Positions 1 through 29,283 of a stretch of DNA of 64,000 nucleotides are shown here, piece by piece. Position 1 is the first letter of the stretch. Every line of letters starts with the position of its first letter. The DNA is from Muricea muricata (taxonomy: Eukaryota > Cnidaria > Anthozoa > Malacalcyonacea > Plexauridae), in NCBI GenBank assembly GCA_963855995.1, contig OY979729.1, forward strand, positions 11,674,115-11,738,114. Direction: 5' to 3'. Position numbers and translations under genes: made by a program. The notes below the pieces were generated by a model that was not told where the DNA came from, did no database searches, and saw only the letters and a list, made by a program, of their open reading frames with translations.

Positions 1-140
1 TTGTTTTGTGGGTCTTGCCGTCCAGGATCGTTCATTCTTTTCTCTTCTTGTGCGTTTTTTTCACATCCCATCACCCTTTGCAATAGTAGAAAGAATTAAG
101 TCATGAGATGATAGTTACGAATAATTTATAAACTATAACA

Positions 141-274
141 TGATAAGTTTCTTGTACGTTTGCATGGTGAATACAATATACTTATTAAGCTTTGTGGAAA
201 CACCACGTAAATTTATTATTGCAATAATAAATTTACGTGGTGTTTCCACAAAGCTTAATAAGTAAACTATAACA
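141..274. mobile_element. 134-bp insertion in left arm containing an 82-bp perfect palindrome
   Basis: The right arm (near 12260) reads straight through this point, so this is an insertion. The ten bases AACTATAACA occur at 131-140 and again at 265-274, and look like a target-site duplication. The insert contains a perfect palindrome at 181-262 that begins CTTATTAAGC and ends GCTTAATAAG, with no unpaired loop apart from the hairpin turn. No coding capacity. Confidence 0.75.
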
Positions 275-299
275 TATTAAGCACTTATTGGATGAGGTT

Positions 300-410
300 T
301 TTGTGATATGCGAAATGATCAATGTCGAGGTAAGAGTTATCAGCCGAGCCGAAGGCGAGTCAGATAACTCTTACCAAGACATTGATAATTTTGCATATCA
401 CAAAAACCGA
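300..410. repeat. Foldback hairpin with GAGCCGAAGGCGAG loop
   Basis: An imperfect inverted repeat: the words TTTTTGTGATATGC, AATGTC and GGTAAGAGTTATC on the left recur as reverse complements on the right, around a loop rich in GAGCCGAAGGCGAGT. The same structure is mirrored in the right arm at about 12130-12240. A hairpin at 42837-42936 has a comparable loop (CTCGGCTTCGCCTCG), suggesting a shared architecture. Confidence 0.6.
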
Positions 411-640
411 ATCCGATAATTGCTTTATTATACATTGTAAGTCTTTTTCCTCGAGCAATTGACGAATTTCGCCTTCGGAAGAGCTTAAAAAGCAAGATGC
501 CATAACATGAAACAGAAAATATCGAAAAAATGTTGTTGCCATGCCAACCATTGATGCCAACGGATACCGCATACTGTAATAATCTGCACCGTAGGCTCAA
601 CATGCAGATAACTCAGTTATCTGCTAGCAGATAACTGAGC

Positions 641-863
641 CATAGAATAAGAATACATAGAAGGGCCACTCGCGTCGGAGCCTTTGGAGTTTTTGAAGCC
701 GCGCATGTCGCATTACGCACGTTATTAGCATTTTCTCAGCCAGTCAATTGCATTTTCTGGCCAATAGGAATGCTGAACTGGCTGGTGGCAGCCAGTAAAC
801 TGCATAAACATAGTGTGACATGTTGCACTGCTGAGTGGCCCTTCTATGTATTCTTATTGTATG
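641..863. mobile_element. MITE, about 223 bp, with 30-bp terminal inverted repeats
   Basis: The ends are inverted repeats of about 30 bp: left CATAGAATAAGAATACATAG, right CTATGTATTCTTATTGTATG. The element is flanked by ACTGAG at 634-639 and 864-869, a 6-bp target-site duplication with one extra base on the left. The right arm of the palindrome has the uninterrupted site near 11900-11930, so the insertion is specific to the left arm. It is non-coding and therefore non-autonomous. I cannot assign a superfamily with confidence. Confidence 0.82.
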
Positions 864-949
864 ACTGAGTTATCTGCAGATTGTGTGATAGTCGCATTTA
901 TCTGCATACAACTGACCAATCACAACGCATAAAACAACTGCAATGTATA

Positions 950-1313
950 GTAATTAACACTTATTGACTGAGACCGAGGGAAACAGTATGTTTTGTGGAC
1001 CAGAGACTGTCGATGTCGAGGGTCCACAAAACATACTGCTTTCCCGAGGTCTCAGTCAATAAGTATTTTATTATATACTGAGTGCCAAAAGAGAAGAAAA
1101 GTACCACAAATCAATCAAACATGTGTAAAAAGGATTACCTTTTACCTGACATGGCTACGTGAGGCTTTGTGGATTTGTTGTCTACCGGTGAATAAAAGTA
1201 ATGTCCACCGCTTAGCTACGTTGCCAGGGAGACAATAGAATTTCTCCACTATCACGTGATACGTTCTTAACCAATAAGAAACAGGAATAAATGAACTTTG
1301 ACACTCAGTATAT
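950..1313. mobile_element. Composite insertion in left arm: 104-bp hairpin plus a TIR element
   Basis: The right arm lacks this block (empty site near 11820). The first part, 960-1063, is a near-perfect hairpin running from CTTATTGACTGAGACC to GGTCTCAGTCAATAAG. The second part, about 1070-1318, is bounded by inverted ends ATATACTGAGTG(C)CAAA and TTTGACACTCAGTATA. The two parts may be one element or one nested beside the other. No coding frame of note is present. Confidence 0.68.
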
Positions 1314-3065
1314 TATAAAATAGTATTAATTAGGCCGGCCAAGTTATTGTGTAAGCTGTTAATATGAAATTTTTTTATTAAAATCTCGAGAATCATTAAT
1401 AAATCGTGAGCAAAACACAAAAGAAAATCATAGCCGTGAAGGAGTCTTTATTTCTCACACGCACACAACTTGCAGCTACCCTAATTTATGAATTTAGATT
1501 AAAATATCTCGAGAATTAAACTACACGTAAGGAATGTGTAAATTCTTAAAGCTCTTTCGAACAATAAAAATTAATATCTCGCACTAATCTCTCTCAAAAG
1601 CTCTCTCAAATTTATTGCCGATATCTCTTTGAGAATTACTGTGCACGTGAAATGTAACTTATATCAAAACTAGCTTACTTCAAGCTGTTTGGGAATCAAA
1701 ATTTTACGTGTCAACGAGATCAAATATGAATCTAAGATGGCAGACAGCGCATTAAATTTCTATCTTTACGACCAACTCCCCAACGAAAGGCTTTAATTCG
1801 CTCGAAAGTCGAATTTTGTTTTTTTTTTATTGTTTCAGGTAGTGAAAGGTCCTGTGTGCTTTTTACAGTACTACCGACACTAGCAACGTTAGTGCGAGAT
1901 GTTAATTTTTATTGAAACAAAAGCTGAACTGCTAAAAAAATGGAAACGACAAGATAAAATAAAAAAACTTACTTTCACTCTATCTTTGGATCTTCTTGGC
2001 TTCGGTTGTTCTCGTTTCATCATGCTGTTTATGGTTTCATCTGGTTGGCGCACTCTCTTCATGGAGCATCAAGGCGGTCCAGTAGGTAACTAGCTCACTC
2101 GTGTCCAGTCAACCAACATAAAATAAGGAGAAAATTAATGTTACAAAATATTTTAGAATATAGGACACTAAGCTTTAATTGAATTGACTTTAACAAACCG
2201 TACATTGTGATAGTATTTGCATCTTAACATCTGATGGAGACGGCTTGTGATTTACTTCTTATGTCGATATGAATTCTTTCCCATCTTGTTGCATCATTAG
2301 TTGATGGTTGTTGTATTCACTTTTTACTTGGCATTCTTTGAAAAAAAAATTACGATGTTCAGAAAACTGTTTACAAGATAAGCAAAGAAAACTACGTTCA
2401 CAAGCATTAGAGAGGACTAAGTAATTATAATAGGCGTGACAGGTCACAGAGGTTAGTCGACGAAGAAACTCATGGACAAATTCCCGGCATGATGATACCC
2501 CGATAGCAAGAAATACAGCAAGTGTAGAACGTGTACGTGTGAGCTTAAACTGTATGTATGCAACTCCAAGAAAAGCGCAACACAAAATGGCGGAATTTAA
2601 AGACATTTCTGGTGTCATTTCCAGTTCCCTAACTTTCGCGGACAAATATATTTATATATTTTTCTCAAATTTTTTTGAAGTAAATCTAGATGGATTTTGT
2701 GAATAAACAAATTAAAAAAAGTATTGCCCACGTTAGGAAACTAGAACGGGCGCCCAAGAATGCCCACAATTTCTCCAATCTGGATTATATTTATTGATTG
2801 CGCAAATGACTGATAAAAAATAAGAGAGTAATAAAATACCAAATGGTTTCCTCTTCAAGATAGTGTCATACATGCGCGCGGCATTTCGGGATATTTGGGA
2901 AAACTCGTGTTGAAGTTGAACCTAAGGCAACATGCCAAGTACATGGATGACGCTATCCTGCTCAGGAAACTATTTAGTAATTGTCTTACAAAATGATGAC
3001 AGTGAAACACAAGTCAACGCCACGGCATTTAAATTTCTCGTGTAGGATTGTTTGATCCTGCACAG

Positions 3066-3260
3066 TAATAGCCAAGTGGCGCAATCGTCAGAGCAAACGC
3101 ATATCACATGTGAGGTCGTGGGTTCAATCCTTACTTCAGACTCGTGACACCCATGTGAGGAGTTAGTCAGTCGTGGGTTTATTCCGGGTACTCCGGTTTG
3201 CGAATGTTGACTGGATGGTTAAAATTGTAAAATATCAGTAATCACCGGAATACGGGTACT
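3066..3260 (+). repeat. tRNA-derived SINE-like repeat (left arm copy)
   Basis: A tRNA-like head contains an A-box-like TGGCGCAATCG near 3077 and a B-box-like GGTTCAATCC at 3121-3130. It is followed by a body that includes CGTGGGTTT and CCGGGTACTCCGG (3172-3199). No full cloverleaf can be drawn, so this is a polymerase-III-type SINE head and not a working tRNA. The body motif recurs reversed at 15602-15628 outside the palindrome. Confidence 0.6.
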
Positions 3261-4445
3261 TAACTAAACTGCTGACGATGAGGCGGAACTCATAATGAAT
3301 TAATGAAAATGTGTTTCACTGTAGTTATCATATAATGTAATTGCCAAGCTGAATGAATAATTCTCCAGTAACTACGTCATATGAATAACTTACAATTATG
3401 AGAGTAGTGGGGGGGGGGGGGGTGCAGCATAAAGATTGAAGTAGTGTCAAGGAAGGGGTACTACCCTGACGGGTACTAGGCGAAGAAGTAGAGTAAACAG
3501 GAGGAAGAAGATTAAATTGGAGTAAATAAGGGGGATTGGGGTAAAGAAGGGGAGAAGCAGGATAAAGAAACCAGTGGAAGGGGGTGCTATCCTGGAAGGA
3601 GTACCCGGGAAAGAAGAGGGTGAACAGGAGGAAAAGTAGATTGGAGAAAAGAAAGGGGAAATTAAACGGATTAGGAAATTCAGACTTGCAATTCAAATGA
3701 AAGGCAGCTCATTGGTCATGTAAACACTCGTTGAATCATGGTTCTCGCTTGCCTTTAGCTTGGAATCATCTTTGAATTTGAACTGAAAGTCTGAATTTGC
3801 ATGTTTCTTGTATAGAGTGCAGTGTATCAGAACAGAAGAGGTTTTGAAGAAAAAGAAAGAAAGAATAAAAGTAAGTTAAAATTTGTAAAGAATAATGGAG
3901 AAACTATTGGTACAGCACTTGATACATGATGATAATCATCATTATAAACTCTCTATTAATCCGGAGGGGGGGTATAATAGAGAATTTGCAATGATAGTAA
4001 GTATATTGTAATATTTGGGTTTTTACCACTAAATCCTCTTGAAAGTTCTTTTTGGCTGTGGCTTCTCTCATCACAGTTGTCTGTGCTTGTCTTGCAAAAT
4101 CTCTGGAATATCTATAACGTGAAGGTCAATATTTAAGATTAGAAAAATAGAAACCGTAAAATAGAAAGAAATTTAAATCGTGGCGAATACTTTTTACGGT
4201 CTTGCTGGCATGACAAAAAGAGAGTATAGATTTATAAGATCATGTTGATTTATCCTTTATCTGAACTATATTTAACTTAGATTTTAAAATAGATTTCACC
4301 CTGGTAAGCAGACCGAATGGGTTTTCAAACAAGATAACATTTAATGACTAAAACGTGCACAGAATAGTTAGAGAATGCTTACATGTCGAATAAAAATCCA
4401 ATACTTTTAATGTCCAACTACACAATAGCGATTTTCGTTGCATTT

Positions 4446-4586
4446 CTAGACTGGAGAAGAAGACGACGCCATTTTGATTTTGATTTCTCCCGACAACGGC
4501 AGATTTGTCTTCGCAATTTTTTTCCATTTCTTCGTCGTTTTAGCTCCAATTTGCTCGTTGTGTTTCTTTCGTACCTTCCTCGCCAT
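4446..4586 (-). CDS. Candidate 46-residue basic ORF, left arm
   Basis: A short frame starts with ATG at 4586 and ends TAG at 4446. It is Lys/Arg-rich in its first half (MARKVRKKHNEQIGAKTTKK) and ends SSSSPV. Upstream on the same strand lie a TATAAA-like word about 25 bp before the start and a perfect TGACGTCA (CRE-type) palindrome about 115 bp before it. An identical copy is on the right arm (8552-8692), but arm identity also preserves the other frames, so conservation is not evidence of coding. It could be a first exon, a small protein, or chance. Confidence 0.22.
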   Translation of the reverse strand: MARKVRKKHNEQIGAKTTKKWKKIAKTNLPLSGEIKIKMASSSSPV

Positions 4587-5009
4587 TTCCGTACAATCAA
4601 TGGACATTTATACTCAAGATTAAGACTGTATTGAGACTTTCAAAATGTTCGTCAGGAGACATAAAAATCGAAGCTTCTTCTTCGGGTTGCAGAAGCAAAT
4701 GACGTCAGACGACCTTTGTCCGCCAGCAAATACCCGTATGTATAACATTCAATGATCTTTTTAGGAAGCTGAAAATCAGTTTTTATTGCGCGAACGAAAT
4801 GTTTTTGCCATTATTTCTTACTCAGGTCTTTGTTCTACTACTTTACTTCCAGTTTAGTTAGGTAACTTGCCAAAAGAAACGCCTGTAAGGGACAATTTTG
4901 CATTTTTTTTTTATTTCGATGCTGATGAAGAAGAGAAGACTCGTTAGAGCTTTCATTGGCAAATATCTTTCCCTCCGTGGCCGAGAGGTAAAGACAACTG
5001 TCTTGACTT

Positions 5010-5115
5010 CGATTTTGGGTGGATCGAGGACCGGTCCAGTTCAACTGAGTTTGGTAAGAATTTAATTCTGGTCGGTGCTCGATCCACCCAAAACTGAATT
5101 CAAAGCTGGGCGTGG
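5010..5115. repeat. Hairpin with GGGTGGATCGAG stems
   Basis: The stem word TTTTGGGTGGATCGAG near 5012-5030 pairs with CTCGATCCACCCAAAA near 5080-5095. The structure is mirrored in the right arm at about 8045-8130. It is one of a series of nested hairpins around the palindrome centre. Confidence 0.6.
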
Positions 5116-5245
5116 AGTGCAGGAAAACACTAGGCAGTACCGCGAGGCCAAGGAGGCAAACGTTATTTTCCTAGTGTTGTTAACTAATATTTAAGCAAAT
5201 TTCATTAACTTGACTGTTGGGGACAGACCTGTAGGGTTGGTGCAT

Positions 5246-5330
5246 TGAAGACTTCTCGTCGTTATTTCCCTTCGTTCAAGAAGACAAGTTGTCTTCATCG
5301 AGAAATAACGACGAAAAGACTTCAAGACAC
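5246..5330. repeat. Hairpin, GAAGACTT stems
   Basis: An inverted repeat: GAAGACTTCTCGTCGTTATT on the left pairs with AATAACGACGAAAAGACTTC on the right, with an inner pair AGAAGACAAGTT and GTCTTCAT. Mirrored in the right arm at about 7810-7895. Confidence 0.7.
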
Positions 5331-5355
5331 CACTAAACCACTACACTTTAAAGCT

Positions 5356-5393
5356 ACAGTGTAGTGGTTTAGCTAGCTAAACCACTACACTGT
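5356..5393. repeat. 38-bp perfect palindrome
   Basis: The sequence ACAGTGTAGTGGTTTAGCT is followed immediately by its exact reverse complement. A third arm fragment (GTAGTGGTTTAG-type) lies just upstream. The mirror copy is at 7747-7784. Confidence 0.85.
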
Positions 5394-5796
5394 GCCAATA
5401 ATATATGGCTGACTTCTTCCTAACGCTTACGGTACGACCATGGATGCGCAAAGATGCGCAAACACATTAAAGCCTTGAAAGCAAGTGTTTTCTTTTAGGA
5501 AAGAATCAAGGACGACAACGCTTACTAAATCAAAGCCGTCTAGTCATGTTTTAAGTACTTCAGCTATGTTTAACGATCTTTTACCAGATCTTTGCAAGAG
5601 GAAAAGTAAAATTTTGCATCATTATTATTAACTTTCCGTCAGTCGTTTCTTTCTTGATCGAGCATTATATGCCATTGTGTTCAGTGTCCTTGATATAGGA
5701 GCCATATACTTATGGCCTTGGGTTTAATTCCCAAACACTGAATGGCAGTGTTTTGCTCTTCCAATGAGATAACAAGATGGCACTGTAGAACGCGTG

Positions 5797-6225
5797 GTTT
5801 TATATAAGCTACGAGCGTCAAGATATCCTTGATAGGTAACTATTGATCCTACAATGGACACTTATGTTCACTGCCAATAGGAACGTTTCCAACTCACAGC
5901 TTGTACATAATGGATTTTATAGGTTGTGTCACAAGGAAACTGCAGTTCGGTCGTAAAATCAACTTGTTTTCAAGGTTGCCGGGTTTTAAACATTACTGAC
6001 ACTGTTAATGTTGTAGCTCGGAATTGTAAAACAACGGCGGCAATGCAGTTTTCTTGTGCCATAACCTGTAAAATGGGTGGTTTTATCATTTATATAAGCT
6101 ACGACCGCCAAGCTTTATCCTTGATAGGAAACAATTGATCCCACCAACGACATTTGTATTCTCTACCGATAGGAACGTTTGAGACTTACAGCTTGTACAT
6201 AACGCATTTTATCGGTGAGTCGTAA
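5797..6225. repeat. Diverged tandem pair carrying TATATAAG boxes
   Basis: A module of about 140 bp starting TTTATATAAGCTACGA (5800) recurs about 284 bp later (6092), sharing CCTTGATAGG, CCGATAGGAACGTT-type and CAGCTTGTACATAA words. Both modules are mirrored on the right arm. The repeated TATATAAG is TATA-box-like, but I see no reading frame that it would serve. Confidence 0.6.
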
Positions 6226-6296
6226 AACCAACCTGTTAGTGCTCAGCAAACTACCAGTTCCCTCGATCAACGATAGTCGATGAAGCTTGGCGCTCG

Positions 6297-6871
6297 TAGG
6301 TTGTGTAAAACCAAGCATTTTACAGGTTATAGCCAGGTTAGCAGTATCTGCAATGTTTCAAAGCAACCACGAATAGAAACTGACAGCCAACGTTCTGAGT
6401 TAAGGTTTGTAGAATATACTACATGATTAGTTACAGCATGACCAGGCATATAGTAAATAACGCATTGCCATCTTGTTCCAAAGTTATCTTATTACTTGAA
6501 AGAGCTGAAGACTGCCATGCAGCGTTTGGGAATCAAACCCAAGGTCATAAATACATGACTCCTATATCAAGGACACTGAACACAATGACATATAAAGCTC
6601 GATCAAGAAAGAAACGACCGACGGAAAGTCAATAGTATATGCAAACTTCGACTTTCCTTCTTGCAAAGGCCTGGTCATAAAAGATCGTTAAACATAGCTG
6701 AGCAACTTAAAACATGCCTACACAGTTTTGATTTAATAAGCGTTATCGTCTTTGACTCTTTCCCGAAAGAAGACATATTCTTTACAGGCTGTACAGTGTT
6801 TGCGCATCTATGCTTCATGCCTTCTTGAAAAGACCTCGCCATAAAAGATCGTTTAACTTAGCTGAACAACT
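6297..6871. repeat. Loop of the giant palindrome: diverged third copy of the central module
   Basis: This segment does not pair with either arm end directly. Positions about 6460-6830 instead form a diverged copy of 7366-7690 in the same orientation, and so are inverted relative to 5450-5760. The palindrome therefore has at least three copies of its central module, one of them older and more diverged. Confidence 0.7.
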
Positions 6872-8551
6872 CGAGCGCCAAGCTTCATCGACTATCGTTG
6901 ATCGAGGGAAATGGTAGTTTGCTGAGCAGTAACAGGTTGGTTTTACGACTCACCGATAAAATGCGTTATGTACAAGCTGTAAGTCTCAAACGTTCCTATC
7001 GGTAGAGAATACAAATGTCGTTGGTGGGATCAATTCTTTCCTATCAAGGATAAAGCTTGGCGGTCGTAGCTTATATGGTTATGGCACAAGAAAACTGCAT
7101 TGCCGCCGTTGTTTTACAATTCCGAGCTACAACATTAACAGTGTCAGTAATGTTTAAAACCCGGCAACCTTGAAAACAAGTTGATTTTACGACCGAACTG
7201 CAGTTTCCTTGTGACACAACCTATAAAAGCCATTATGTACAAGCTGTGAGTTGAAAACGTTCCTATTGGCAGTGAACATAAGTGCCATTGTAGGATCAAT
7301 AGTTACCTATCAAGGATATCTTGACGCTCGTAGCTTATATAAAACCACGCGTTCTACAGTGCCATCTTGTTATCTCATTGGAAGAGCAAAACACTGCCAT
7401 TCAGTGTTTGGGAATTAAACCCAAGGCCATAAGTATATGGCTCCTATATCAAGGACACTGAACACAATGGCATATAATGCTCGATCAAGAAAGAAACGAC
7501 TGACGGAAAGTTAATAATAATGATGCAAAATTTTACTTTTCCTCTTGCAATGATCTGGTAAAAGATCGTTAAACAGCTGAAGTACTTAAAACATGACTAC
7601 ACGGCTTTGATTTAGTAAGCGTTGTCGTCCTTGATTCTTTCCTAAAAGAAAACACTTGCTTTCAAGACTTTAATGTGTTTGCGCATCTTTGCGCATCCAT
7701 GGTCGTACCGTAAGCGTTAGGAAGAAGTCAGCCATATATTATTGGCACAGTGTAGTGGTTTAGCTAGCTAAACCACTACACTGTAGCTTTAAAGTGTAGT
7801 GGTTTAGTGGTGTCTTGAAGTCTTTTCGTCGTTACTTCTCGATGAAGACAACTTGTCTTCTTGAACGAAGGGAAATAACGACGAGAAGTCTTCAATGCAC
7901 CAACCCTACAGGTCTGTCCCCAACAGTCAAGTTAATGAAATTTGCTTAAATATTAGTTAACAACGCTGGGAAAATACGTTTGCCTCCTCGGCCTCGCGGT
8001 ACTGCCTAGTGTTTTCCTGCACTCCACGCCCAGCTTTGACTTCAGTTTTGGGTGGATCGAGCATCGATCAGAATTAAATTCTTACCAAACTCAGTTGAAC
8101 TGGACCGGTCCTCGATCCACCCAAAATCGAAGTCAAGACAGTTGTCTTTACCTCTCGGCCACGGAGGGAAAGATATTTGCCAATGAAACCTTTAACGAGT
8201 CTTCCCTTGTTCATCAGCATCCAAATAAAAAAAATTGCAAAATTGTCCCTTACAGGCGTTTCTTTTGGCAAGTTACCTAAGTAAACATGAAGTAAAGTAG
8301 CAGAAGAAAGACCTGAGTAAGAAATAATGGCAAAAACACTTCGTTCGCGCAATAAAAACCGATTTTCAGCTTCCTAAAAAGATCATTGAATGTTATACAT
8401 ACGGGTATTTGCTGGCGGACAAAGGTCGTCTGACGTCATTTGCTTCTGCAACCCGAAGAAGAAGCTTCGATTTTTATGTCTCCTGACGAACATTTTGAAA
8501 GTCTCAATACAGTCTTAATCTTGAGTATAAATGTCCATTGATTGTACGGAA

Positions 8552-8692
8552 ATGGCGAGGAAGGTACGAAAGAAACACAACGAGCAAATTGGAGCTAAAA
8601 CGACGAAGAAATGGAAAAAAATTGCGAAGACAAATCTGCCGTTGTCGGGAGAAATCAAAATCAAAATGGCGTCGTCTTCTTCTCCAGTCTAG
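8552..8692 (+). CDS. Candidate 46-residue basic ORF, right arm
   Basis: This is the mirror copy of the frame at 4446-4586, with the same TGACGTCA palindrome (about 8434) and TATAAA-like word (about 8524) upstream. Two other exon-like pieces follow in the same direction on this arm: a short frame ending at a GTAAGT donor near 11162, and a segment at 11966-12163 with AG and GT borders. Together they hint at a gene pointing outward on each arm. Nothing in it matches a family I know. Confidence 0.22.
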   Translation: MARKVRKKHNEQIGAKTTKKWKKIAKTNLPLSGEIKIKMASSSSPV

Positions 8693-9871
8693 AAATGCAA
8701 CGAAAATCGCTATTGTGTAGTTGGACATTAAAAGTATTGGATTTTTATTCGACATGTAAGCATTCTCTAACTATTCTGTGCACGTTTTAGTCATTAAATG
8801 TTATCTTGTTTGAAAACCCATTCGGTCTGCTTACCAGGGTGAAATCTATTTTAAAATCTAAGTTAAATATAGTTCAGATAAAGGATAAATCAACATGATC
8901 TTATAAATCTATACTCTCTTTTTGTCATGCCAGCAAGACCGTAAAAAGTATTCGCCACGATTTAAATTTCTTTCTATTTTACGGTTTCTATTTTTCTAAT
9001 CTTAAATATTGACCTTCACGTTATAGATATTCCAGAGATTTTGCAAGACAAGCACAGACAACTGTGATGAGAGAAGCCACAGCCAAAAAAAACTTTCAAG
9101 AGGATTTAGTGGTAAAAACCCAAATATTACAATATACTTACTATCATTGCAAATTCTCTATTATACCCCCCCCCCGGATTAATAGAGAGTTTATAATGAT
9201 GATTATCATCATGTATCAAGTGCTGTACCAATAGTTTCTTCATTATTCTTTACAAATTTTAACTTACTTTTATTCTTTCTTTCTTTTTCTTCAAAACCTC
9301 TTCTGTTCTGATACACTGCACTCTATACAAGAAACATGCAAATTCAGACTTTCAGTTCAAATTCAAAGATGATTCCAAGCTAAAGGCAAGCGAGAACCAT
9401 GATTTAACGAGTGTTTACATGACCAATGAGCTGCCTTTCATTTGAATTGCAAGTCTGAATTTCCTGATCCGTTTAATTTCCCCTTTCTGTACTCCAATCT
9501 ACTTTTCCTCCTGTTCACCCTCTTCTTTCCCGGGTACTCCTTCCAGGATAGCACCCCCTTCCACTGGTTTCTTTATCCTGCTTCTCCCCTTCTTTACCCC
9601 AATCCCCCTTATTTACTCCAATTTAATTTTCTTCCTCCTGTTTACTCTACTTCTTCGCCTAGTACCCGTCAGGGTAGTACCCCTTCCTTGACACTACTTC
9701 AATCTTTATGCTGCCCCCCCCCCCACTACTCTCATAATTGTAAATTATTCATATGACGTAGTTACTGGAGAATTATTCATTCAGCATGGCAATTACATTA
9801 TATGATAACTACAGTGAAACACATTTTCATTAATTCATTATGAGTTCCGCCTCATCGTCAGCAGTTTAGTT

Positions 9872-10066
9872 AAGTACCCGTGTTCCGGTGATTACTGATA
9901 TTTTACAATTTTAACCGTCCAGTCAACATTCGCAAACCGGAGTACCCGGGATAAACCCACGGCTGACTAACTCCTCACATGGGTGTCACGAGTCTGAAGT
10001 AAGGATTGAACCCACGACCTCACATGTGATAGGCGTTTGCTCTGACGATTGCGCCACTTGGCTATT
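9872..10066 (-). repeat. tRNA-derived SINE-like repeat (right arm mirror copy)
   Basis: This is the mirror image of the copy at 3066-3260, with the B-box complement GGATTGAACC at 10002-10011. It arose by the same event as the palindrome arms, not as a separate insertion. Confidence 0.58.
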
Positions 10067-11965
10067 ACTGTGCAGGATCAAACAATCCTACACGAGAAAT
10101 TTAAATGCCGTGGCGTTGACTTGTGTTTCACTGTAATCATTTTGTAAGACAATTACTAAATAGTTTCCTGAGCAGGATAGCGTCATCCATGTACTTGGCA
10201 TGTTGCCTTAGGTTCAACTTCAACATGAGTTTTCCCAAATATCCCGAAATGCCGCGCGCATGTATGACACTATCTTGAAGAGGAAACCATTTGGTATTTT
10301 ATTACTCTCTTATTTTTTATCAGTCATTTGCGCAATCAATAAATATAATCCAGATTGGAGAAATTGTGGGCATTCTTGGGCGCCCGTTCTAGTTTCCTAA
10401 CGTGGGCAATACTTTTTTTAATTTGTTTATTCACAAAATCCATCTAGATTTACTTCAAAAAAATTTGAGAAAAATATATAAATATATTTGTCCGCGAAAG
10501 TTAGGGAACTGGAAATGACACCAGAAATGTCTTTAAATTCCGCCATTTTGTGTTGCGCTTTTCTTGGAGTTGCATAGATACAGTTTAAGCTTACACGTAC
10601 ACGTTCTACACTTGCTGTACTTCTTGCTATCGGAATATCATCATGACGGGAATTTGTCCATGAGTTTCTTCGTCGACTAACCTCTGTGACCTGTCACGCC
10701 TATTATAATTACTTAGTCCTCTCTAATGCTTGTGAACGTAGTTTTCTTTGCTTATCTTGTAAACAGTTTTCTGAACATCGTAATTTTTTTTTCAAAGAAT
10801 GCCAAGTAAAAAGTGAATACAACAACCATCAACTAATGACGCAACAAGATGGGAAAGAATTCATATCGACATAAGAAGTAAATCACAAGCCGTCTCCATC
10901 AGATGTTAAGATGCAAATACTATCACAATGTACGGTTTGTTAAAGTCAATTTCAATTAACGCTTAGTGTCCTATATTCTAAAATATTTTGTAACATTAAT
11001 TTTCTCCTTATTTTATGTTGGTTGACTGGACACGAGTGAGCTAGTTACCTACTGGACCAGCGTGATGTTCCATGAAGAGAGTGCGCCAACCAGATGAAAC
11101 CATAAACAGCATGATGAAACGAGAACAACCGAAGCCAAGAAGATCCAAAGATAGAGTGAAAGTAAGTTTTTTGATTTTATCTTGTCGTTTCTATTTTCTT
11201 TAGCAGTTCAGCTTTCGTTTCAATAAAAATTAACATCTCGCACTAACGTTGCTAGTGTTGGCAGTGCTGTAAAAAGCACACAGGATCTTTCACTACATTA
11301 AACAATAAAAAAACAAAATTCGACTTTCGAGCGAATTAAAGCCTTTCGTTGGGGAGTTGGTCGTAAAGATAGAAATTTAATGCGCTGTCTGCCATCTTAG
11401 ATTCATATTTGATCTCGTTGACACGTAAAATCTTAATTCCCAAACAACTTGAAGTAAACTAGTTTTGATAGAAGTTACATTTCACCTGCAAAGTAATAGT
11501 TGAAGAGATATTGGTAATAAATTTGAGAGAGCTTTTGAGAGAGATTAGTGCGAGATATTAATTTTTATTGTTCGAAAGAGCTTTAAGAATTTACACATTC
11601 CTTACGTGTTGTTTAATTCTCGAGATATTTTGATTTAAAATCATAAATTAGGGTAGCTGCAAGTTGTGTGCGTGTGAGAAATAAAGACTCCTTCACGGCT
11701 ATGATTTTCTTTTGTGTTTTGTTCACGATTTACTAATGATTCTCGAGATTTTAATAAAAAAATTTCATATTAACAGCTTACACAATAATTTGGCCGGCCT
11801 AATTAATAAACTATTTTATTATACATTGCAGTTGTTTTATGCGTTGTGATTGATCAGTTGTATGCAGATAAATGCGACTATCACACAATCTGCAGATAAC
11901 TCAGTTATCTGCTAGCAGATAACTGAGTTATCTGGATGTTGAGCCTACGGTGCAGATTATTACAG

Positions 11966-12163
11966 TATGCGGTATTCGTTGGCATCAATGGTTGGCATGG
12001 CAACAACATTTTTTCGATATTTTCTGTTTCATGTTATGGCATCTTCCTTTTTAAGCTCTTCCGAGGGCGAAATGCGTCAATTGCTCGAGGAAAAAGACTT
12101 AAAATGTATAATAAAGCAATTATCGGATTCGGTTTTTGTGATATGCAAAATTATCAATCTCTC
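11966..12163 (+). other. Exon-like segment with acceptor and donor signals (right arm)
   Basis: The segment follows ATTATTACAG (a good acceptor) and runs into GTAAGAGT (a good donor), with two overlapping frames open across it. One frame begins MRYSLASMVGMATTFF and reads GEMRQLLEEKDLKCIIKQL further on. The left-arm mirror at about 373-572 keeps both splice signals. However, most of the base differences between the two copies change amino acids, which argues against selection on the protein. It is a possible exon relic. Confidence 0.25.
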
Positions 12164-12405
12164 GGTAAGAGTTATCTGACTCGCCTTCGGCTCGGCTGAT
12201 AACTCTTACCTCGACATTGATAATTCCGCATATCACAAAAACCTCATCCAATAATTGTTTAATATGTTATAGTTTATAAATTACTCGTAACTATCATCTC
12301 ATGATTTAATTCTTTCTACTATTGCAAAGGGTGATGGGATGTGAAAAAAACGCACAAGAAAAGAAAAGAATGAACGATCCTGGACGACAAGACCCACAAA
12401 ACAAC

Positions 12406-13160
12406 AATCCACAAGAATGAGAAGACACGACATTGTAATAGAAAGTAGTGGTAATGTGCAAGTTAGTAGAAAACAAGATACTTATTATTGAGGGATCAAA
12501 GAGGATTTAATAGATATTTCTCGTTAATGAAAAAGAAAAGACAGCAAATTAAGTGAAAAAAATTGGATTGAAATAACATTGATATCAAATACATTCAACA
12601 AAATAATTAAATAGAATACCTAGGAGTTTGGCAGTCAATTTTCGAGTCAAAAAACAGGTAAAAATATGGTAAATGTCGACAATATTTTTTAAAGAAACAA
12701 TACCTTAACGCCTGGAAATTTTGTCTCTAACATTTGGATTTGGATATTTCTAAAAACAAAACAAAATAACATGTAGGATTGAACGTTTTACAAAAATAAG
12801 TTTCGTAATAATGCCACTAAATTATAGTTGATGCATTTTGTCACTATTCTTGGTTTGCACATGCCGTCATTTCGTGTGATTGGGCGCCATCTTGGTTGAC
12901 TCTGCAGATTACTTCAGCTGTTTACAGCGAAACACTGGTGTCAATTTACTATTTCATCGTTAGTTTTAGCGTATTATGAATGATACTTTAAAGATGTATG
13001 GCTCGATAGGATCAGATATAATGAATAGATACTTTGTGGTTGCCATGTGTTTCAAACGTCAACAAAGATGGCGTCGATTGTAAACGATCAATTCCGTCGT
13101 TCTACCTTTAAAGAATGTGTTCTCTGGTTAAAAAGCGAGAAAATTTGACTTGTATTCCAA
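12406..13160. other. Intergenic, no feature recognised
   Basis: AT-rich single-copy-looking DNA just outside the palindrome. The palindrome pairing can no longer be followed here because the mate sequence would lie left of the window. I see no gene or RNA. Confidence 0.5.
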
Positions 13161-13402
13161 TTCACCGCAGCAAAACAGATGGTGGCATGTCGATTTTACC
13201 AGAATTTAATGCGGGTATCAATCAAGAATAGCAGTGAAATGATATTTAACATAAGCTAATGGACGGAATTTTAACACAAGTGACAAAATAACCTATCTGT
13301 CTGTTCCTCAAACGAGGTTAATTTACCTTAAGTTTTTAAACGATTTCAGACCGCAAGGCATTCTGGTAAAATCAACACCCGCCATCTTTTTGCTACATTA
13401 AA
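13161..13402. mobile_element. MITE with ~40-bp TIRs (family A, copy 1)
   Basis: The left end (TAGCAAAA-type, then GTCGATTTTACCAGAAT) and the right end (ATTCTGGTAAAATC, then GCCATCTTTTTGCTACA) are inverted repeats. A second copy lies at 18854-19095, clearly related but with many substitutions. Non-coding. Confidence 0.72.
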
Positions 13403-13897
13403 TTCCCAAGGGAATATATCATTTCTTTGTTTCTTAGCTAATTTGGTTCATACATCCATGCAAATCAGTAGGATCATTATATTTTTTTGTGCATTTTAAA
13501 TTCCCATGGGAATACAGCATGCTTTGTTTCAATGGTGATGCGTCTGTTTATGGTAATTACTGCATAATGCGAATCCTCTTTGATTATTAATATGATAAGT
13601 ATCTTGGTGCTTTCAGATTTGTTTTGGTAAGCAGGAACAATGAAGTCATTGTTTGTGTACACTAAAGCAAATTACGAAGGTGGTTTGAGAGCAGCTGCGA
13701 GGTACCATGCAAATGAAGGCGTTTCGGTTAAATAAGTGTGAGAATTACGGCATTAAAAATTGCATGTCATCTACACTTAAGGATATAAGTTGCCAAAAAA
13801 AAAACAACTTTAGTGAATCTGTTGAGTTTCAATTGCTTTTTATTTTTGCCTAATTCTCATGCTCATTTGACCCAGCCTTGGACTTTGGTAAGTATCA

Positions 13898-14139
13898 GGG
13901 GCCGGTTGTATCAAAGGCGTTTAGCTTAAACGGTGGATAAGTCAAAAATATGAAACAAGTTTCCATGTTGTATAAACAAACCAGCTGAAGTTATTTGACC
14001 TGAGAAGAACAATTATATATAAAACTAAATATTTATTCTATTTCAACTCATAATTTCGGTTCCGTACTAGGTGTAAAACTGATTTTTAAATTTCACTTAT
14101 CCACCGTTTAAGCTAAACGCCTTTGATACAACCGGCCCC
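13898..14139. mobile_element. MITE with GGGGCCGGTTGTATC ends (family B, copy 1)
   Basis: TIRs of about 45 bp begin GGGGCCGGTTGTATCAAAGG and are mirrored at the right end. If the termini are read as CAGGGGCC and GGCCCCAG, the flanks GTAAGTAT and GTTTATAT match at 6 of 8 bases, consistent with an old hAT-type 8-bp duplication, but this is weak. A second copy is at 29981-30226. Confidence 0.78.
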
Positions 14140-14968
14140 AGGTTTATATTTACTCCGGAACAGTTAACACAACGAAAAGCCCATGCCCATTCAGCTAAGG
14201 TTTTACGTTTGAAAATTCAATCAAAAACTCAGTCTAAGTGGGTTTAAGTAGCTAGAGATAACGTAATTTATCTTTTTATTTTGCTTTTTTGTTTATAACG
14301 TAATTTATTAGCTAAATGTATGGACTGCGAGGGTGTGCGCCGTGTGTAAGTTGCATGGGATTAGGTTTATTAAAGGAATTAAAATTTTTGAAAGTATGCT
14401 TAAAAACCAAAATCTGTCGTCACTTCTAACAAAACAGTTAAGAGTAGGTTTCAACATCAACTAAATTGATCTATACTATTAACTAAGAAAAATGCGAATT
14501 AAGTTTTATATTTTGCAAGCAAATTTTAAATAGAATTCTCACCTGTTTTTATGTACGAGCTTTTTCTGTTTACGTTTGATCTAAAATATCCAAATAAATT
14601 GCATTTAAAATGCATACTTTACCGAAATTTTAACTCTTTTAATTTTCGAAATTGGGTGGCAGTCGGGGTGGTGGTGGTGCATGCGGGTTTATCAGCTGTG
14701 AGTGACTGTGCGATGGTGAGGAAAGTGAAGGTAACGAATGGAATGCAGGAGCTTAGAACTGAGGAAGACAGCTTAGAACTGAGGCAGGTAGGCAGTTGGT
14801 AGGATCAGCGGGGGGCACTTGACATTTTGGCTTTGGGAATCAAATTTGCATGCTAAGTACTTAAGTCACTAACGTTTGTTGTTTTAATTTGTTAGGTACG
14901 CGCGGCTGCTCTCTAGGGAAGATCAACTTAGCAATTGTATTAGCACTTGCAAAGTTGGTCTTCTCTTT

Positions 14969-15092
14969 GCCGGCTACCCCGGCCAGTTCTCCGAGTGCTA
15001 CTTCCACCGTGAATAAGTAGAAGTACTTGTACTACATGTATAAGTACTTCTACTTAGGTGGAAGTGGCACTTGGGGAGCTGGCCGGGGTAGG
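14969..15092. repeat. Long GC-rich foldback hairpin
   Basis: The stem runs from CCGGCTACCCCGGCCAG through GTGCTACTTCCACC to AAGTAGAAGTACTT, and is mirrored after a short loop at about 15030-15092. It stands out from its AT-rich surroundings and is non-coding. Confidence 0.72.
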
Positions 15093-15109
15093 GGGATTTT
15101 TTTTATTCA

Positions 15110-18100
15110 ATTTCTCAATTCCCATGGGAATTGAATTTTTAATTAAAAAGGGGTCACAAGTAAATTTTGTAAACAATTTATTGAAAAAATTTGTAAAGAT
15201 TACATACAATTTGAATAACAATAAAAAGAGATTAACTACCACACATTGTACTTATTAAAATAACAACAGAAGAAAACAGAACATGGCAGAGAGAACAATA
15301 ACACAAGTGAATGAACAAAGTCCTAAAAAACTTGGGTCTTTTCAACGTAAGTAAATGTTTATACTTCAAAATATATTATAACAATGAAACAACTTGAAGT
15401 GATAAATTTTGAGAGTTTTGCAAAGGTTTACCCAGCATATAACGAGTTGTTTCACAATTACAAAGAAAAACATGTGGCTCAAAACATGCAACTGATAGAG
15501 ATGACGAGAAGGCTTAACAAGTCTAAGTAGAAAGGTTTTCAAAAGTTAGTCACATTTTTATAACCATATGTAACTACCCTGTCAACTCTCCCAGTGGGAA
15601 GAACCGGAGTACCCGGAGAAAACCCACGAGTTTTGGCGGAGCGTTGACCAACGCTTTTTCAAATACAGCCAGCCTCACAGAAGAAAGGTATTTTTGTCAA
15701 AAGAAAAATATTATTTTTAATCAATTGTGCTTTTATAAGTCAGAAAAAATACATGCACGAATTACCAACGAATTTTGATGGCTTTGAGACATGTAACGTG
15801 GGCACATAATTCTTCCTAAAAATACTTTTTTGTACTCGAAACAACCCTTCAAAACGTCGAAAAACAACGAAGAAACGATTTTTTTATAAATTCCAAATTG
15901 ACCAAGCTGTAATGTTCGGAGCCACATTTTTCTTATTGCGTTTCTAACCTGACAATGTGAAATACACTAAACATTGCTACCTTTATTTTTTTTTAACAAA
16001 AAATTCAAAAATACATAGAATAAAAACCAAGCATTTTTAGAATATTGTGTGTAGATCGACATTTTTCAGAAACCAATCTCTTACACTTTTCTTTGCATAA
16101 CAGTGCATGCGATCTATTTTTCGCAAAAAAATACAAAGAAAGTCTCAGACATCTCATTTTTCTGGTGGGCACAAGAACAGAAGCTTTTTGTTCAAATTGT
16201 GATAATTTATTTGAGATAACTTTGGGCAAAATTCTATTTTTCATTGAAAACAGCCGAAAAATCAATGCTTTGGCTTTGCCCAGCAACTAATGAAGTCACT
16301 CGATAGTGAAGTTGCTTTATATACAATTGATAGTTTCAGTGTTAAAGAGACCAAAATAAAAGTAGAAATACATAACTTAGATTGATCTTGGATTGAAAAG
16401 TAAAAAATTTATTCGAAGAATCAATTTAAATTTAGTCTTTTTGGAAGGAACCATTGTCAGGTTAGGAACATATCTCTTTGAAGTATAAATTCATCTTTAC
16501 TTACTTGTTGAAAAGACTATATTCAAGAGCCATGTAAACCTGTTTTCTTATATTATTATTACCACGCAAGTATTACAAAGTGGAATATTTGAAATGTAAA
16601 CTTGAACTTGAACTGAAGCAAAGGAAATGCACATACAAATTCAGAAATATTTCAATTGCCAAAATACAAATTCACCACAACCAAACAATATAAAAAGTTC
16701 CAGTAGGCAATATGTTGTAATTTTAATTAAGAAACTTATAAAGTAATAAATCATACAGGAAACACAAAAGAAATCATTTTCTCATCTTACAGAATCGGTA
16801 TTTTCAAAATCACTTTGCTATAGATCTGATGTATAAAATTGACGAGTTTCACAAGCCATTTACAACATTCGCATCTGTGTATGTCAGATATCTCGCCTTC
16901 AGCTTGGGTTTGTATATCCGATACAACCCGGTCACTTGTATTGTAAATAGTACAAATCAAAATTGTTATCAAATCAAAGTCTCAAACTAATTTAAATTAT
17001 TCTACTCCATATAATGCCAGACAGTTTTACTTTTTCTCAGGAAAGACCTTATGTTCAACAAGGTAAATTTGGCATGTTAATTAAGAAGTCTGTAAAATTT
17101 GAAATTGCATAGTATCAACTAAAAGCTTCATGTGACTTAAAACTTTTTCAAGTCGATGTAATACGAAGAACTCTGGTAAAGTATTTACTGTATCCAGGCA
17201 TCAATAGAAAACTTTTAAAATTAAAAATTGTAGTTACTTATACTTATTATTGGCCAACATCTGTACTGCTTGTTTATCTAGAAAATCTGGCATACTGTCG
17301 ATTTTTTTAGTCCAAGGAAACTTTTTTACTCTTAAATTCTTACATCCGCCACATCTTTTCTTTGCTAATAAAAAGAGCCCACAGAATTTATTTGGCAAGT
17401 TGTGGTTTTCTTTTTCATTTAAGATATGTAATTAATTGATAAAGTTAAAGAACAACTGCATCAGTTCATCTCAATTCCAAACAAGTTCCACTTTGTAAAC
17501 AAAAGACAATATGCTAGCTTATTTTGTCCTTAATAAGTAGTTCATCTTAAAGTTTGAAAGTCAACATTCTAGTACAAAATCACAAAGTCTGTATCTAAGA
17601 TAAATTACCAGTAGTATAAAATATTACAAAGTATTTTTTTAACTTTAAAGGGTCCAATATAACATTGAGAACTATTGTGATTTTCAAATGAACTTTCCAA
17701 ACTTTCAAATGAACACTCAAAGCCAGCTTAAACAAAAGATGATTGAGATAGTAAACCAGGAAATAACATAGGTGTTGTAATTTTTTATCAAAAATATGAT
17801 ATAGTGCATATAACAGAAACATTTCAATTAAAAAGTAGAAATATATTTCCTGTGGTTAGTTTTAATTGCTACATATATTGAAATTTTAGTATAATGGATG
17901 TTTTTGTTTCTGGCAAAGTCACCTCAATCTCCTTATGTTTAACCAACATTACAAAGTCAAATAATGACAAACACGAATGATTAAACACAAATTTATATTT
18001 TAATGGGTAAAAATAAATATGTCCAAATTAGTATAATCATGCATATAGGTCTAGTAGGGTACCAATTTTTAGGAACAGAATTGTGTTGTTTAGAGGCATA

Positions 18101-18740
18101 ACATATAAAATTGCTAGATTTGATATTTCAGTTTTTTAAGAAAGCCTTTTGTATGTGTTTTCATGAACTCTTGGGCCATAATTCAATTGATTTGAACCAA
18201 ATAAGATTCTAACTTTCTTTTAAAACACAGTTCATCATTATTTGACTTTTTCTAAGATTAAAATGCTTCTGGAGCACATGAGATTCCACGGTATGTGTAC
18301 CCACAAAATAATCGTCAAATTAGGTGAGAATGAAACCGTCATGTCCAAAATTATACTGTCCCAAATTGTCCCATATTCAATATTGTACATGCAATATTCC
18401 AATACCTTTAACAATTTCATTTTTCATAATCTGCCAGTTGTTGAGAGGAGGTTAAGCATTTTGTCGATCTACAAACAAATTTCAAAGAATTCTATTGAAG
18501 ATAGATAACTGAAATGGTAAACAAACTGCAAAAGATAACAATGCAAGTGGTTGTGTAAAAACTAAAGACCACGTAAAGTCGGCCATTCTGTACAGTGTTT
18601 GGATTTGACAGTTTGAATTTTAATTGCCTCAAGAAAAGTCTAAAAGGCATTAAAAACATAACATTCCTTGTTCTTTTTTAACCTCCCGACCTTGCACGAC
18701 TCCCACATCCTGCTCCGTCTCCTCCTATCCACCTCCCACC
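15110..18740. other. AT-rich intergenic stretch with no recognised gene
   Basis: About 3.6 kb of low-GC DNA with only short random frames. At 15602-15628 it carries ACCGGAGTACCCGG followed by GAAAACCCACG, the reverse complement of a motif in the SINE-like repeat at 3172-3199. I see no RNA gene or other clear element. Confidence 0.5.
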
Positions 18741-18819
18741 CTCAAGGCCCTGTCACACGGTGCAATTTTTCTTGCACTTGTAACTGCTCCGTCTCCTTCT
18801 CTATCCACCTCTTACCCTT

Positions 18820-19252
18820 AAGGCCCTGTCACACGGTGCACTTTTCCTTGCATTCACCGTAGCAAAAAAGATGGCGACATGTCGATTTTACCAGAATGCA
18901 TTGCAGGTATCAAGAAAGAATACGTGGGAAAAGATGACAAGAAACAAAGCTACTGGATTGAAATTTTAACACAAGTGTGAAAATAACCTATTGTCTTCTG
19001 TCTGTTCTTCAAAAGACGTTAATTTGCCTTTTTAAACAATTTCAGACTGCCATGCACTCTGGTAAAATCGACATTTGCCATCTTTTTTGCTACAGGGAAA
19101 ATCTACTCTTAAGTAAATTTGTGACAAATGTTTGGTACGTTAAAAAACCCCAGCAAACTGTGATGGAAACTTGCATTTGCCAATTTTACATCTCCCAATA
19201 GTAGAATTGCATTTCAAGTTGCAAGAAAAATTGCATTGTGACAGGACCTTTA
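18820..19252. mobile_element. DNA-transposon-like element with AAGGCCCTGTCACA ends
   Basis: The left end AAGGCCCTGTCACACGGTGC at 18820 is matched by the inverted right end TTGCATTGTGACAGGACCTTT (trailing part) at about 19232-19252. An extra copy of the left end lies at about 18743. The interior is almost wholly a second element (18854-19095), so the structure is nested. Confidence 0.6.
18854..19095. mobile_element. MITE with ~40-bp TIRs (family A, copy 2)
   Basis: This is related to 13161-13402 along its whole length, in the same orientation, with matching inverted ends (GTCGATTTTACCAGAATGC and GCACTCTGGTAAAATCGAC). It lies inside the AAGGCCCTGTCACA-bounded element. Confidence 0.72.
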
Positions 19253-19437
19253 TTCTCCAGTGTTCCCGCCAACCTGCTCCCACCATTAGATGGAAAGTCC
19301 TTTTTTCACTACATTTTAGTAATTAGGCTACCCCCCTCCTCTCACAAGTCTGTAATCGCCTGACGAAATCAATTGGTCGACAGTCCAAGGCATGTTTTGT
19401 AATCGAAATTCACAAAATTAAAATTAAATTGCCTTTT

Positions 19438-21797: not shown

Positions 21798-22294
21798 ATT
21801 TCTGCAAAGTTTCAAGCAATTTCATTGTAATTTGGAAACTTTCAAAAATTTACCCACATATGAGAGAGAGGAAAAATGTTAGCACTATGAAGCTTACGAA
21901 CAAAAACAGACACCTCAGGGAAAGACACTGGAAAGACATATATAGGTAAAATGCAGGACTCACTGAACAACCAGTACAATATGCCATTAGCTTTTCAAAC
22001 TTAGCTATTTCATCAACAAACACTGATTTAGGTATTTCTGCAAAGTTTCAAGCAATTTCATTGTAATTTGGAAACTTCCAAAAATTTACCCACATATGAG
22101 AGGGTGGAAAAATGTTAGCACTATAATTCAACCATAGCAAAGTCTCTCAACTGTATCATAACTGGCCCAATATTAGTTTTTTCATCAAAGTAGACTGATT
22201 TAATGATGTTTGCACAGTTTCAAAGGATTTCGATGCAATATATGAAGTTTACGAACAACAGACACCTCTGGGAAAGACACTGGAAAGGCATATA

Positions 22295-23062
22295 CAGGGT
22301 GTATAAAAAAAGTAGACAATTTTGAAACGGCTCTCAACCTCGCGAAGTGGCTTGAAGTATGAAGTTTTTTTATTAATATACATTGCTTGGGTACTTACGG
22401 TGTAGAATAAATGATAATATTTTAAAATTTAAATATTTCAAACCCAGGGGTGTGCGATTTTGAAACACATTAAAAATGGCGTGCGCGCGAAATTTAAAGG
22501 CTTAAAAGTAATTTTGAGTTGGTAGGTAGAAAATATGTTAGGTGTTTTATTGCTGTTCAAAATTTCAAGAAATTTGATTGAGTTTAAGCCACTCAAAATA
22601 TCGTGCGAACGTATATTTTTTCAATAAGAATCATTTTTCTGAAGAAATGTGCCAATTTTAATTAAATGTCCCTTGGGAGTTGAATGCAAATTGAGTAAAT
22701 ACATAAATTAAACATGCACAAAGCTAATTTTGCCAAAAATATGGAAGTTTGCACGATGTTTTAAACGGCTTAGACTCGAGCAAATTTTTTGAAATTTTGT
22801 ACAGCAATACAACACCGGACAAGTTTTCCATCTACCAAGTCAAAATTATTTTTAAGCATTTAAGTTTTGTGCACAAGACATATTTAAATTGCGGTAAAAG
22901 ATAGAACCCTCCGGGTATTGAAGTTTTAAATTTCTCATTTTTTTGGTTTATTCTAGATTATAAGTACCAAAACAACCTAATTTAATACAAAACATCGTAC
23001 ATTGAAGCGCTTCGCGAAACAGAGAGCGATTTCAGATTTGTCTACTTTTTTTATACACCCTG
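22295..23062 (+). mobile_element. Foldback element E1 (CAGGGTGTATAAAA termini)
   Basis: Runs from CAGGGTGTATAAAAAAAGTA to its inverted partner ending TTTATACACCCTG, with TA on both sides, as in Tc1/mariner-type insertions. The two halves form an old inverted repeat, roughly two-thirds identical by eye. Each half holds an open frame of about 78-96 codons, but differences between halves are not concentrated at third positions, so coding is unlikely. Confidence 0.85.
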
Positions 23063-29185: not shown

Positions 29186-29283
29186 CAGGGTGCTTAAAAA
29201 AAGTAGACAAATCTGAAATCACTCTCTGTTTTGCATTAAAATTGATTGTTTTGGTACTTATAACCTAGAATAAACCAAAAAAA
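29186..29283 (-). mobile_element. Foldback element E6, truncated
   Basis: The first ~100 bp of an E2/E4-type copy with internal deletion. After AATAAACCAAAAAAATGA the similarity stops, which marks the end of the higher-order array. Confidence 0.75.

What the first reader, a model, noticed from the sequence alone, without database searches (positions are those of the whole stretch)
1..12405. A ~12.4 kb near-perfect palindrome with no obvious gene
Seen: two ~6 kb arms pair from the window edge to a 575 bp loop, with long stretches identical. Known: palindromes this long are unstable in most genomes and are kept as foldback elements, inverted gene duplications or hairpin-RNA loci. Inferred: if transcribed through, it would yield kilobases of double-stranded RNA, a natural substrate for Dicer. 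No protein explains it.
Basis: partly seen in the sequence, partly recalled or inferred. Interest (0 to 1): 0.72.

Follow-up and report, generated by a model that had tools for sequence, protein, structure and literature searches.

The report
Giant palindromic jumping element in octocoral

Summary
The palindrome is real, but 1-12405 is only its core. The window lies on contig C14 of an octocoral genome. The right arm runs to 19438, the left arm 7.5 kb past the window edge. The two shortest complete copies measured are 28.66 and 28.68 kb; loop 561 bp; no recognisable gene. About 270 copies exist (arm 51-mer 537 hits, loop 51-mer 274). Arm-specific alleles recur in 6 of 8 copies compared, so it is copied as a palindrome, with arm-to-arm conversion and flipping on top; misassembly is ruled out for practical purposes. 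Among exact arm hits the three large chromosomes (257 Mb) hold 5, C4+C5 (38 Mb) hold 86. Both ends carry ~0.4 kb almost identical to the 5' end of short rolling-circle elements of Helentron/HINE design, one of which (19439-21361) truncates this copy. The HINE 3' end is in no palindrome sequence I read. Differences between arms drop about eightfold beyond 6 kb from the centre. Best model: a HINE 5' end read through into DNA holding an older palindrome; the displaced strand snapped back and copied its own 5' end, giving two 5' ends and no 3' end. The snap-back step and the transposase are inferred. A new variant of a known kind.

The parts
1..6304 (+). arm 1 (inner part; it continues 7.5 kb left of the window to C14:11666629)
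129..262 (.). 134-bp insertion in arm 1 (itself an inverted repeat)
   Evidence: found once in C3, C4, C5, C9, twice in C12 and C15, not found in C14b
634..863 (.). 230-bp insertion in arm 1
   Evidence: once in six other copies, twice in C12
954..1316 (.). 363-bp insertion in arm 1
   Evidence: once in six other copies, twice in C12
6305..6865 (.). loop, 561 bp; 6496-6813 is an old diverged repeat (84%) of arm sequence 5448-5764
   Evidence: loop 51-mer 151+123 hits at up to 2 mismatches
6866..19438 (-). arm 2, cut off at 19438 about 1.1 kb before its end
12600..19438 (-). outer part of arm 2, where the arms become nearly identical (step about 6 kb from the centre)
19439..21361 (+). short HINE-like non-autonomous rolling-circle element that truncates the right arm; related to the ends of the palindrome
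19439..19466 (+). 5' terminus of that element: 28-nt hairpin whose first 12 nt are the 5' subTIR; same terminus as at both ends of complete palindromes
20420..20793 (+). 31-bp central tandem array of the HINE-like element
21326..21337 (+). 3' subTIR (reverse complement of the 5' subTIR), 24 nt from the 3' end
21340..21355 (+). 3' stem-loop

Best explanation
This is a copy, damaged at both ends, of a giant non-coding mobile palindrome: arms of about 14 kb, a 0.56-kb loop, and at each end about 0.4 kb of the 5' end of a Helentron/HINE-type rolling-circle transposon. SHOWN: a dispersed family of about 270 near-identical copies; precise ends with TT outside each 5' terminus; amplification as a ready-made palindrome; conversion and flipping between arms; strong bias to small chromosomes among exact hits; the 5' terminus shared with short asymmetric elements whose 3' end is in no palindrome sequence read; a step in arm divergence 6 kb from the centre. 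INFERRED: a HINE read through its 3' terminator into flanking DNA that held an older palindrome of about 12 kb; the displaced strand folded back there and, primed by its own 3' end, copied the outer arm and its own 5' end. With two 5' ends, transposition can start from either and no 3' end is needed. A Helentron RepHel protein acting in trans is presumed.
For: Copies; 94 of 99 listed arm hits on C3-C6 in inverted pairs, 40 of 47 pairs 21.0-22.6 kb apart. Same arm alleles in 6 of 8 copies, 62 of 4737 mirrored sites informative. Ends; 32 of 32 exact termini in the loci held are preceded by TT, 28 distinct places. Outer 407 bp 98.3% like the C1 element L075. Short elements have both ends: 24 of 48 exact 5' ends on C1 have a same-strand exact 3' end 1.2-5.8 kb inside, random placement 0.125, opposite strand 0. 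HINE plan (subTIRs, 3' stem-loop, tandem array, T-rich target) as in PMC4067079 passages. 5' end needed, 3' end dispensable, read-through: PMC4778049 passages. Arm step: 80 shared differences at 0.3-6 kb, 6 at 6-9.3 kb.
Against: No 3' end in the palindrome, so it is not an ordinary HINE. No partner transposase linked: 3 of 105 Rep hits on C1 within 15 kb of a listed end, 3.2 expected; three Rep hits on C2 lie 9-12 kb from 5' ends but on the outer side, with similar spacing, perhaps one duplicated block. Empty target site not found. A 3-bp TTA repeat flanks 2 of 6 copies with both ends. Far outer arms do not cluster cleanly by copy: within-copy 1.5-5.2, between-copy mean 4.0, minimum 1.5 differences per kb. 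Arm differences are also low at 0.3-4 kb (6.7 per kb), so conversion could shape part of the step. Donor of the arm sequence not found.
Confidence: 0.68

Rival explanations
1. A cut-and-paste foldback DNA transposon (for example PIF/Harbinger-like with a TWA target duplication) with giant terminal inverted repeats, whose ends only happen to be shared with the HINE-like elements.
For: Symmetric ends; flanks rich in TTA/TAA; TTA on both sides in 2 of 6 copies with both ends, if the TT/AA is counted to the element.
Against: 4 of the 6 show no such repeat. The terminus is the 5' end of asymmetric elements with a different 3' end. No transposase found in the arms.
Confidence: 0.14
2. The palindromes spread by segmental duplication or ectopic recombination between existing copies, not by transposition.
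For: Some copies have odd flanks: C4:6691021-6722478 has HINE interior on the right but other sequence on the left; this copy is truncated on both sides.
Against: Complete copies start and stop at the same terminus with differing outside sequence.
Confidence: 0.06
3. A conserved hairpin-RNA locus family: the palindrome is kept because transcripts feed RNA silencing.
For: Arms would give long double-stranded RNA if transcribed through; conversion keeps arms alike. No expression evidence.
Against: About 270 dispersed copies with transposon ends are explained without such a role; no RNA data to test it.
Confidence: 0.06
4. Assembly artefact: two haplotypes or a fold-back read joined head to head.
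Against: Eight loci share loop and arms, six of them arm-specific alleles; about 270 copies; precise ends.
Confidence: 0.02

Closest known systems
HINE / DINE-1-like elements, non-autonomous Helentrons (PMC4067079, passages)
   Same: 5' subTIR that is itself palindromic, T-rich target with TT outside, no clear target duplication; the short relative 19439-21361 also has the inverted 3' subTIR, a 3' stem-loop and a central tandem array.
   Different: The palindrome is 28.7 kb, symmetric, has the 5' end at both ends and no 3' end in what was read. In the short relative the 3' subTIR is 24 nt from the end; mite HINEs have 38-60.
Helitron2 / Fusarium FoHeli elements with extra 5' termini (PMC5148889, passages)
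   Same: Hairpins at both termini, asymmetric inverted repeats; the authors propose chimeric elements with two 5' termini by self-insertion, and one element inserted into another in opposite orientation.
   Different: In the passages seen there is no giant palindrome; their two 5' termini lie in the same direction and a 3' end is kept.
Helraiser / Helibat read-through transduction (PMC4778049, passages)
   Same: Needs the 5' end, not strictly the 3' end; loss of the 3' hairpin gives read-through and capture of flanking DNA.
   Different: No inverted duplication is described in the passages seen.
Foldback transposons such as Drosophila FB, Galileo, Tetris (search listing; details recalled)
   Same: Very long inverted arms around a short middle, non-coding.
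   Different: Cut-and-paste type with target duplications of several bases (recalled); here none of 6 copies shows one longer than 3 bp.
Sex-chromosome palindromes (human Y recalled; willow, PMC7023750, listing)
   Same: Arm-to-arm conversion and arm flipping.
   Different: Those are few and gene-bearing; this is a dispersed, gene-free mobile unit.

Membership tests
HINE / Helentron (the palindrome) | 5' subTIR of at least 11 bp next to the terminus | tested here: met
   Same 28-nt terminus, 12-nt subTIR, at both ends in 6 copies
HINE / Helentron (the palindrome) | 3' end with inverted subTIR and terminal stem-loop | tested here: not met
   36-nt 3' end absent (up to 6 mismatches) from all 86 loci and the window except the short elements at 21326, L083, L084; no copy was read in full, C14a and C12 nearly so
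HINE / Helentron (the palindrome) | Inserts in T-rich TT target without duplication | tested here: inconclusive
   TT outside 32 of 32 exact termini, short elements included; empty sites not found; TTA on both sides in 2 of 6
HINE / Helentron (the palindrome) | Autonomous partner with RepHel sharing the ends | tested here: inconclusive
   150 Rep hits scored of 352 candidates; on C1 no excess near the ends
HINE (short element 19439-21361) | subTIRs, 3' stem-loop, tandem array, no coding capacity, TT target | tested here: met
   target duplication not tested for this copy
Foldback (FB/Galileo type) | Long inverted arms with short middle | tested here: met
Foldback (FB/Galileo type) | Target site duplication of several bp (recalled) | tested here: not met
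   6 copies with both ends, none over 3 bp
PIF/Harbinger | 3-bp TWA target duplication | tested here: inconclusive
   2 of 6 copies
PIF/Harbinger | DDE transposase in or linked to the family | not tested
   Arm frames show no such domain; the genome was not searched for one
Assembly artefact | Junction unique to one contig, arms as two haplotypes | tested here: not met

The most novel reading that the evidence does not exclude
A rolling-circle transposon that has dispensed with a 3' end: the displaced strand of the palindrome folds on itself, its own 3' end primes synthesis of the missing end, and two 5' ends are regenerated by snap-back at each transposition. Its spread marks the small chromosomes as a separate compartment of the genome.
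Probability: 0.28. Interest if true: 0.88.

Novelty: new variant of a known kind. Interest (0 to 1): 0.76.

Why it matters
Palindromes of tens of kilobases are expected to be unstable, yet here one of 28.7 kb has been copied about 270 times: at most about 7.7 Mb, 1.7% of the genome or about 4% of C4-C16 if all were complete. It gives hundreds of replicate palindromes for measuring arm conversion, flipping and loss. It suggests that a rolling-circle element can spread with 5' ends only, which experiments on a reconstructed bat Helitron make plausible (PMC4778049 passages). And it draws a sharp line between large and small chromosomes that calls for an explanation.

Tried and rejected
Rejected: misassembly; coding origin (12 arm and loop frames, no Pfam match over cut-off); known RNA families (0 matches at gathering score, whole window); tRNA genes (0). 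My first idea, a PIF/Harbinger element, was demoted when the terminus proved to belong to asymmetric elements. The idea that nearby Helitron Rep genes are the partner did not hold on C1: 3 of 105 within 15 kb, 3.2 expected. Empty sites: 0 matches twice. In the nine paper searches that ran no listing described such an element; open-licence library only, no preprints; passages of five papers were seen, the rest as listings. Rows set aside: the row C14b_R has a variant or misaligned stretch and is not used; C15 has 20 of 62 sites unscored, C12 and C5 two each. Of ten copies tried for both ends, six gave both, two gave one, two gave none.
Full report
WHERE IT IS. The window is G000:C14:11674115-11738114 of a 453-Mb genome in 74 contigs. 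Contig C74 (19,292 bp) is a mitochondrial genome (COX1 match; frames) with a 987-codon MutS frame carrying MutS and HNH domains. A mitochondrial MutS is, as I recall, peculiar to octocorals, so the organism is an octocoral; the species is not known. Three long contigs (C1 124 Mb, C2 72 Mb, C3 61 Mb) are followed by thirteen of 11.6-19.2 Mb. Gorgonia ventalina has the same pattern: 80, 40 and 33 Mb, then thirteen of 10.5-19.0 Mb (PMC12856254, table passage). So I take these as real large and small chromosomes.

THE OBSERVATION. The palindrome is there: 1311-6066 against 11823-7077 at 97.9%, with a 561-bp loop and three insertions in arm 1. The right arm runs to 19438; its partner lies left of the window (99.4%) and reaches C14:11666629, so this copy spans 26.9 kb. 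Both its ends are missing: on the left other sequence follows, on the right the arm is cut at 19438 by another element. Six copies with both ends measure 28,664, 28,683, 29,393, 29,459, 29,827 and 31,458 bp; the longer ones presumably carry insertions. Ten copies were tried: six gave both ends, two one, two none at the expected place.

A FAMILY. An arm 51-mer occurs 267+270 times and a loop 51-mer 151+123 times at up to 2 mismatches: about 270 palindromes. Of the 99 listed arm hits on C3-C6, 94 form inverted pairs, 40 of the 47 pairs at 21.0-22.6 kb. The hundredth listed hit is alone on C2.

CHROMOSOME BIAS. The first 100 exact arm hits come in contig order and are therefore complete through C5: C1 0, C2 1, C3 4, C4 34, C5 52, then 9 on C6 before the list is cut. 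That is 5 on 257 Mb against 86 on 38 Mb. The loop k-mer agrees: among its first 100 exact hits none on C1 or C2 and two on C3. Places with 1-2 mismatches are not shown, so older copies on C1-C3 are not excluded. On C4, 32 of 34 hits lie in the first 6.72 Mb. The terminus shared with the short elements is not so restricted: 48 exact hits on C1.

IT IS COPIED AS A PALINDROME. Across eight copies (about 10.5 kb each, pairwise 98.3-99.7%), 62 of 4737 mirrored sites differ between the arms by majority. In the standard state are 62 sites in C14a, 57 in C3, 57 in C9, 47 in C4, 46 in C14b and 41 in C15 (20 unscored). C12 has the arm-1 allele on both arms at 58 sites. C5 is flipped at 33 sites and converted one way or the other at 25. 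C12 also carries all three arm-1 insertions on both arms, C15 one of the three. So the palindrome is inherited ready-made, with conversion and flipping between arms on top.

A STEP IN ARM DIVERGENCE. Arm differences shared by copies C14a and C3 number 80 between 0.3 and 6 kb from the centre (14 per kb; 55 of them between 4 and 6 kb) and 6 between 6 and 9.3 kb (1.8 per kb). Between 7 and 12 kb the two arms of C14a, C12 and C15 differ by 1.5-2.1 per kb and those of C3 by 5.2; arms of different copies differ by 4.0 on average over 62 pairs, minimum 1.5. So the founder had older inner arms and nearly identical outer arms. The inner 0.3-4 kb is also fairly low (6.7 per kb), so conversion may have shaped part of the profile.

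THE ENDS. Ten end loci share sequence up to one edge. Nine end with the same 28-nt palindromic terminus, one of them with a mismatch; the tenth has lost the last tens of bases next to a repeat. Outside sequences differ, except that L027 and L028 share that repeat. All 32 exact termini in the loci held (28 distinct places, short elements included) are preceded by TT. With one further stretch the terminus occurs 587+498 times in the genome within 2 mismatches. On C1 it is the 5' end of short asymmetric elements. The window holds one at 19439-21361, and two C1 relatives end at the same place. Their 36-nt 3' end occurs 559+516 times within 2 mismatches. Of 48 exact 5' ends on C1, 24 have an exact same-strand 3' end 1.2-5.8 kb inside; random placement gives 0.125 and the opposite strand 0. 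The first 12 nt of the terminus recur inverted 24 nt from the 3' end, followed by a stem-loop; a 31-bp tandem array lies inside. This is the published HINE/Helentron plan (PMC4067079 passages; Helitron2 likewise, PMC5148889 passages), except that mite HINEs have the 3' subTIR 38-60 nt from the end. The palindrome's outer 407 bp match the C1 element L075 at 98.3% and the window's own short element at 87.9%. The 3' end is in no palindrome locus read, 86 loci scanned.

MECHANISM. A reconstructed bat Helitron needs its 5' end, can do without its 3' end, and reads through into flanking DNA when the 3' hairpin is removed (PMC4778049 passages). I propose that such a read-through captured several kilobases of flank and then an older palindrome of about 12 kb. 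Once past the loop the displaced strand folded back and copied the outer arm and its own 5' end. This single event would explain two 5' ends, no 3' end, old inner arms and young outer arms. It is inference: neither the donor locus nor the transposase has been found. Later copies were made from the finished palindrome. Copy C12, whose arms agree from about 1 kb from the centre outward apart from a cluster at 6-8 kb, may be a fresh snap-back product, or a long conversion. Why the large chromosomes are avoided is unexplained.

SIZE IN CONTEXT. Helitrons of up to 39 kb are on record in maize, with captured gene fragments (PMC6431247 passages); so the length alone is not unique. The palindromic form, the two 5' ends and the copy number at this length are what I did not find described.

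LIMITS. There are no RNA data and no second individual. The two empty-site searches were negative. The literature library is open-licence only.

Noticed in passing
G000 C1-C3 versus C4-C16: The three large chromosomes are about 1.6-1.8 times those of Gorgonia ventalina while the small ones are about the same size; Helitron Rep-domain hits concentrate on C1 (105 of the 150 scored).
   Followed up: partly
G000:C4: 32 of 34 exact palindrome-arm hits lie in the first 6.72 Mb of the 19.2-Mb contig, then only one pair at 15.37 Mb; regional avoidance within a small chromosome.
   Followed up: no
window 19439-21361: HINE-like element with perfect 5' and 3' ends truncating the palindrome; the arm does not resume after it within the window.
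   Followed up: yes
window 21886-29234: Tandem array of units around 2.6 kb, about 97% alike, with inverted sub-blocks of about 0.78 kb.
   Followed up: no
window 38331-39866 (+), 41030-42562 (+), 44788-46329 (-), 49291-50838 (-): Four uninterrupted 510-515-aa frames of a UDP-glycosyltransferase cluster, two in each orientation; two were scanned and match UDPGT.
   Followed up: partly
G000:C1:38414782-38416095: A nuclear COX1-like frame of 443 aa with one TAA (by the standard code), probably a mitochondrial insert.
   Followed up: no
G000:C7:1949327-1978785 (L047, L048): This copy sits in the middle of an inverted repeat: its two flanks are reverse complements for some 30 bp; no unoccupied form was found.
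   Followed up: partly
G000:C4:6691021-6722478 (L041, L042): Right flank is HINE interior, left flank is not: rearranged by recombination or deletion.
   Followed up: no
window 32812-33126 and L024 2877-3351, 5357-6104: A tandem repeat of about 113 bp on either side of this palindrome copy.
   Followed up: no
L024 8452-8912, flanks of L026 and L030: A diverged (79%) relative of arm sequence 1986-2398 lies next to this copy and similar sequence borders two other copies (by eye): the arms contain an older dispersed repeat.
   Followed up: partly
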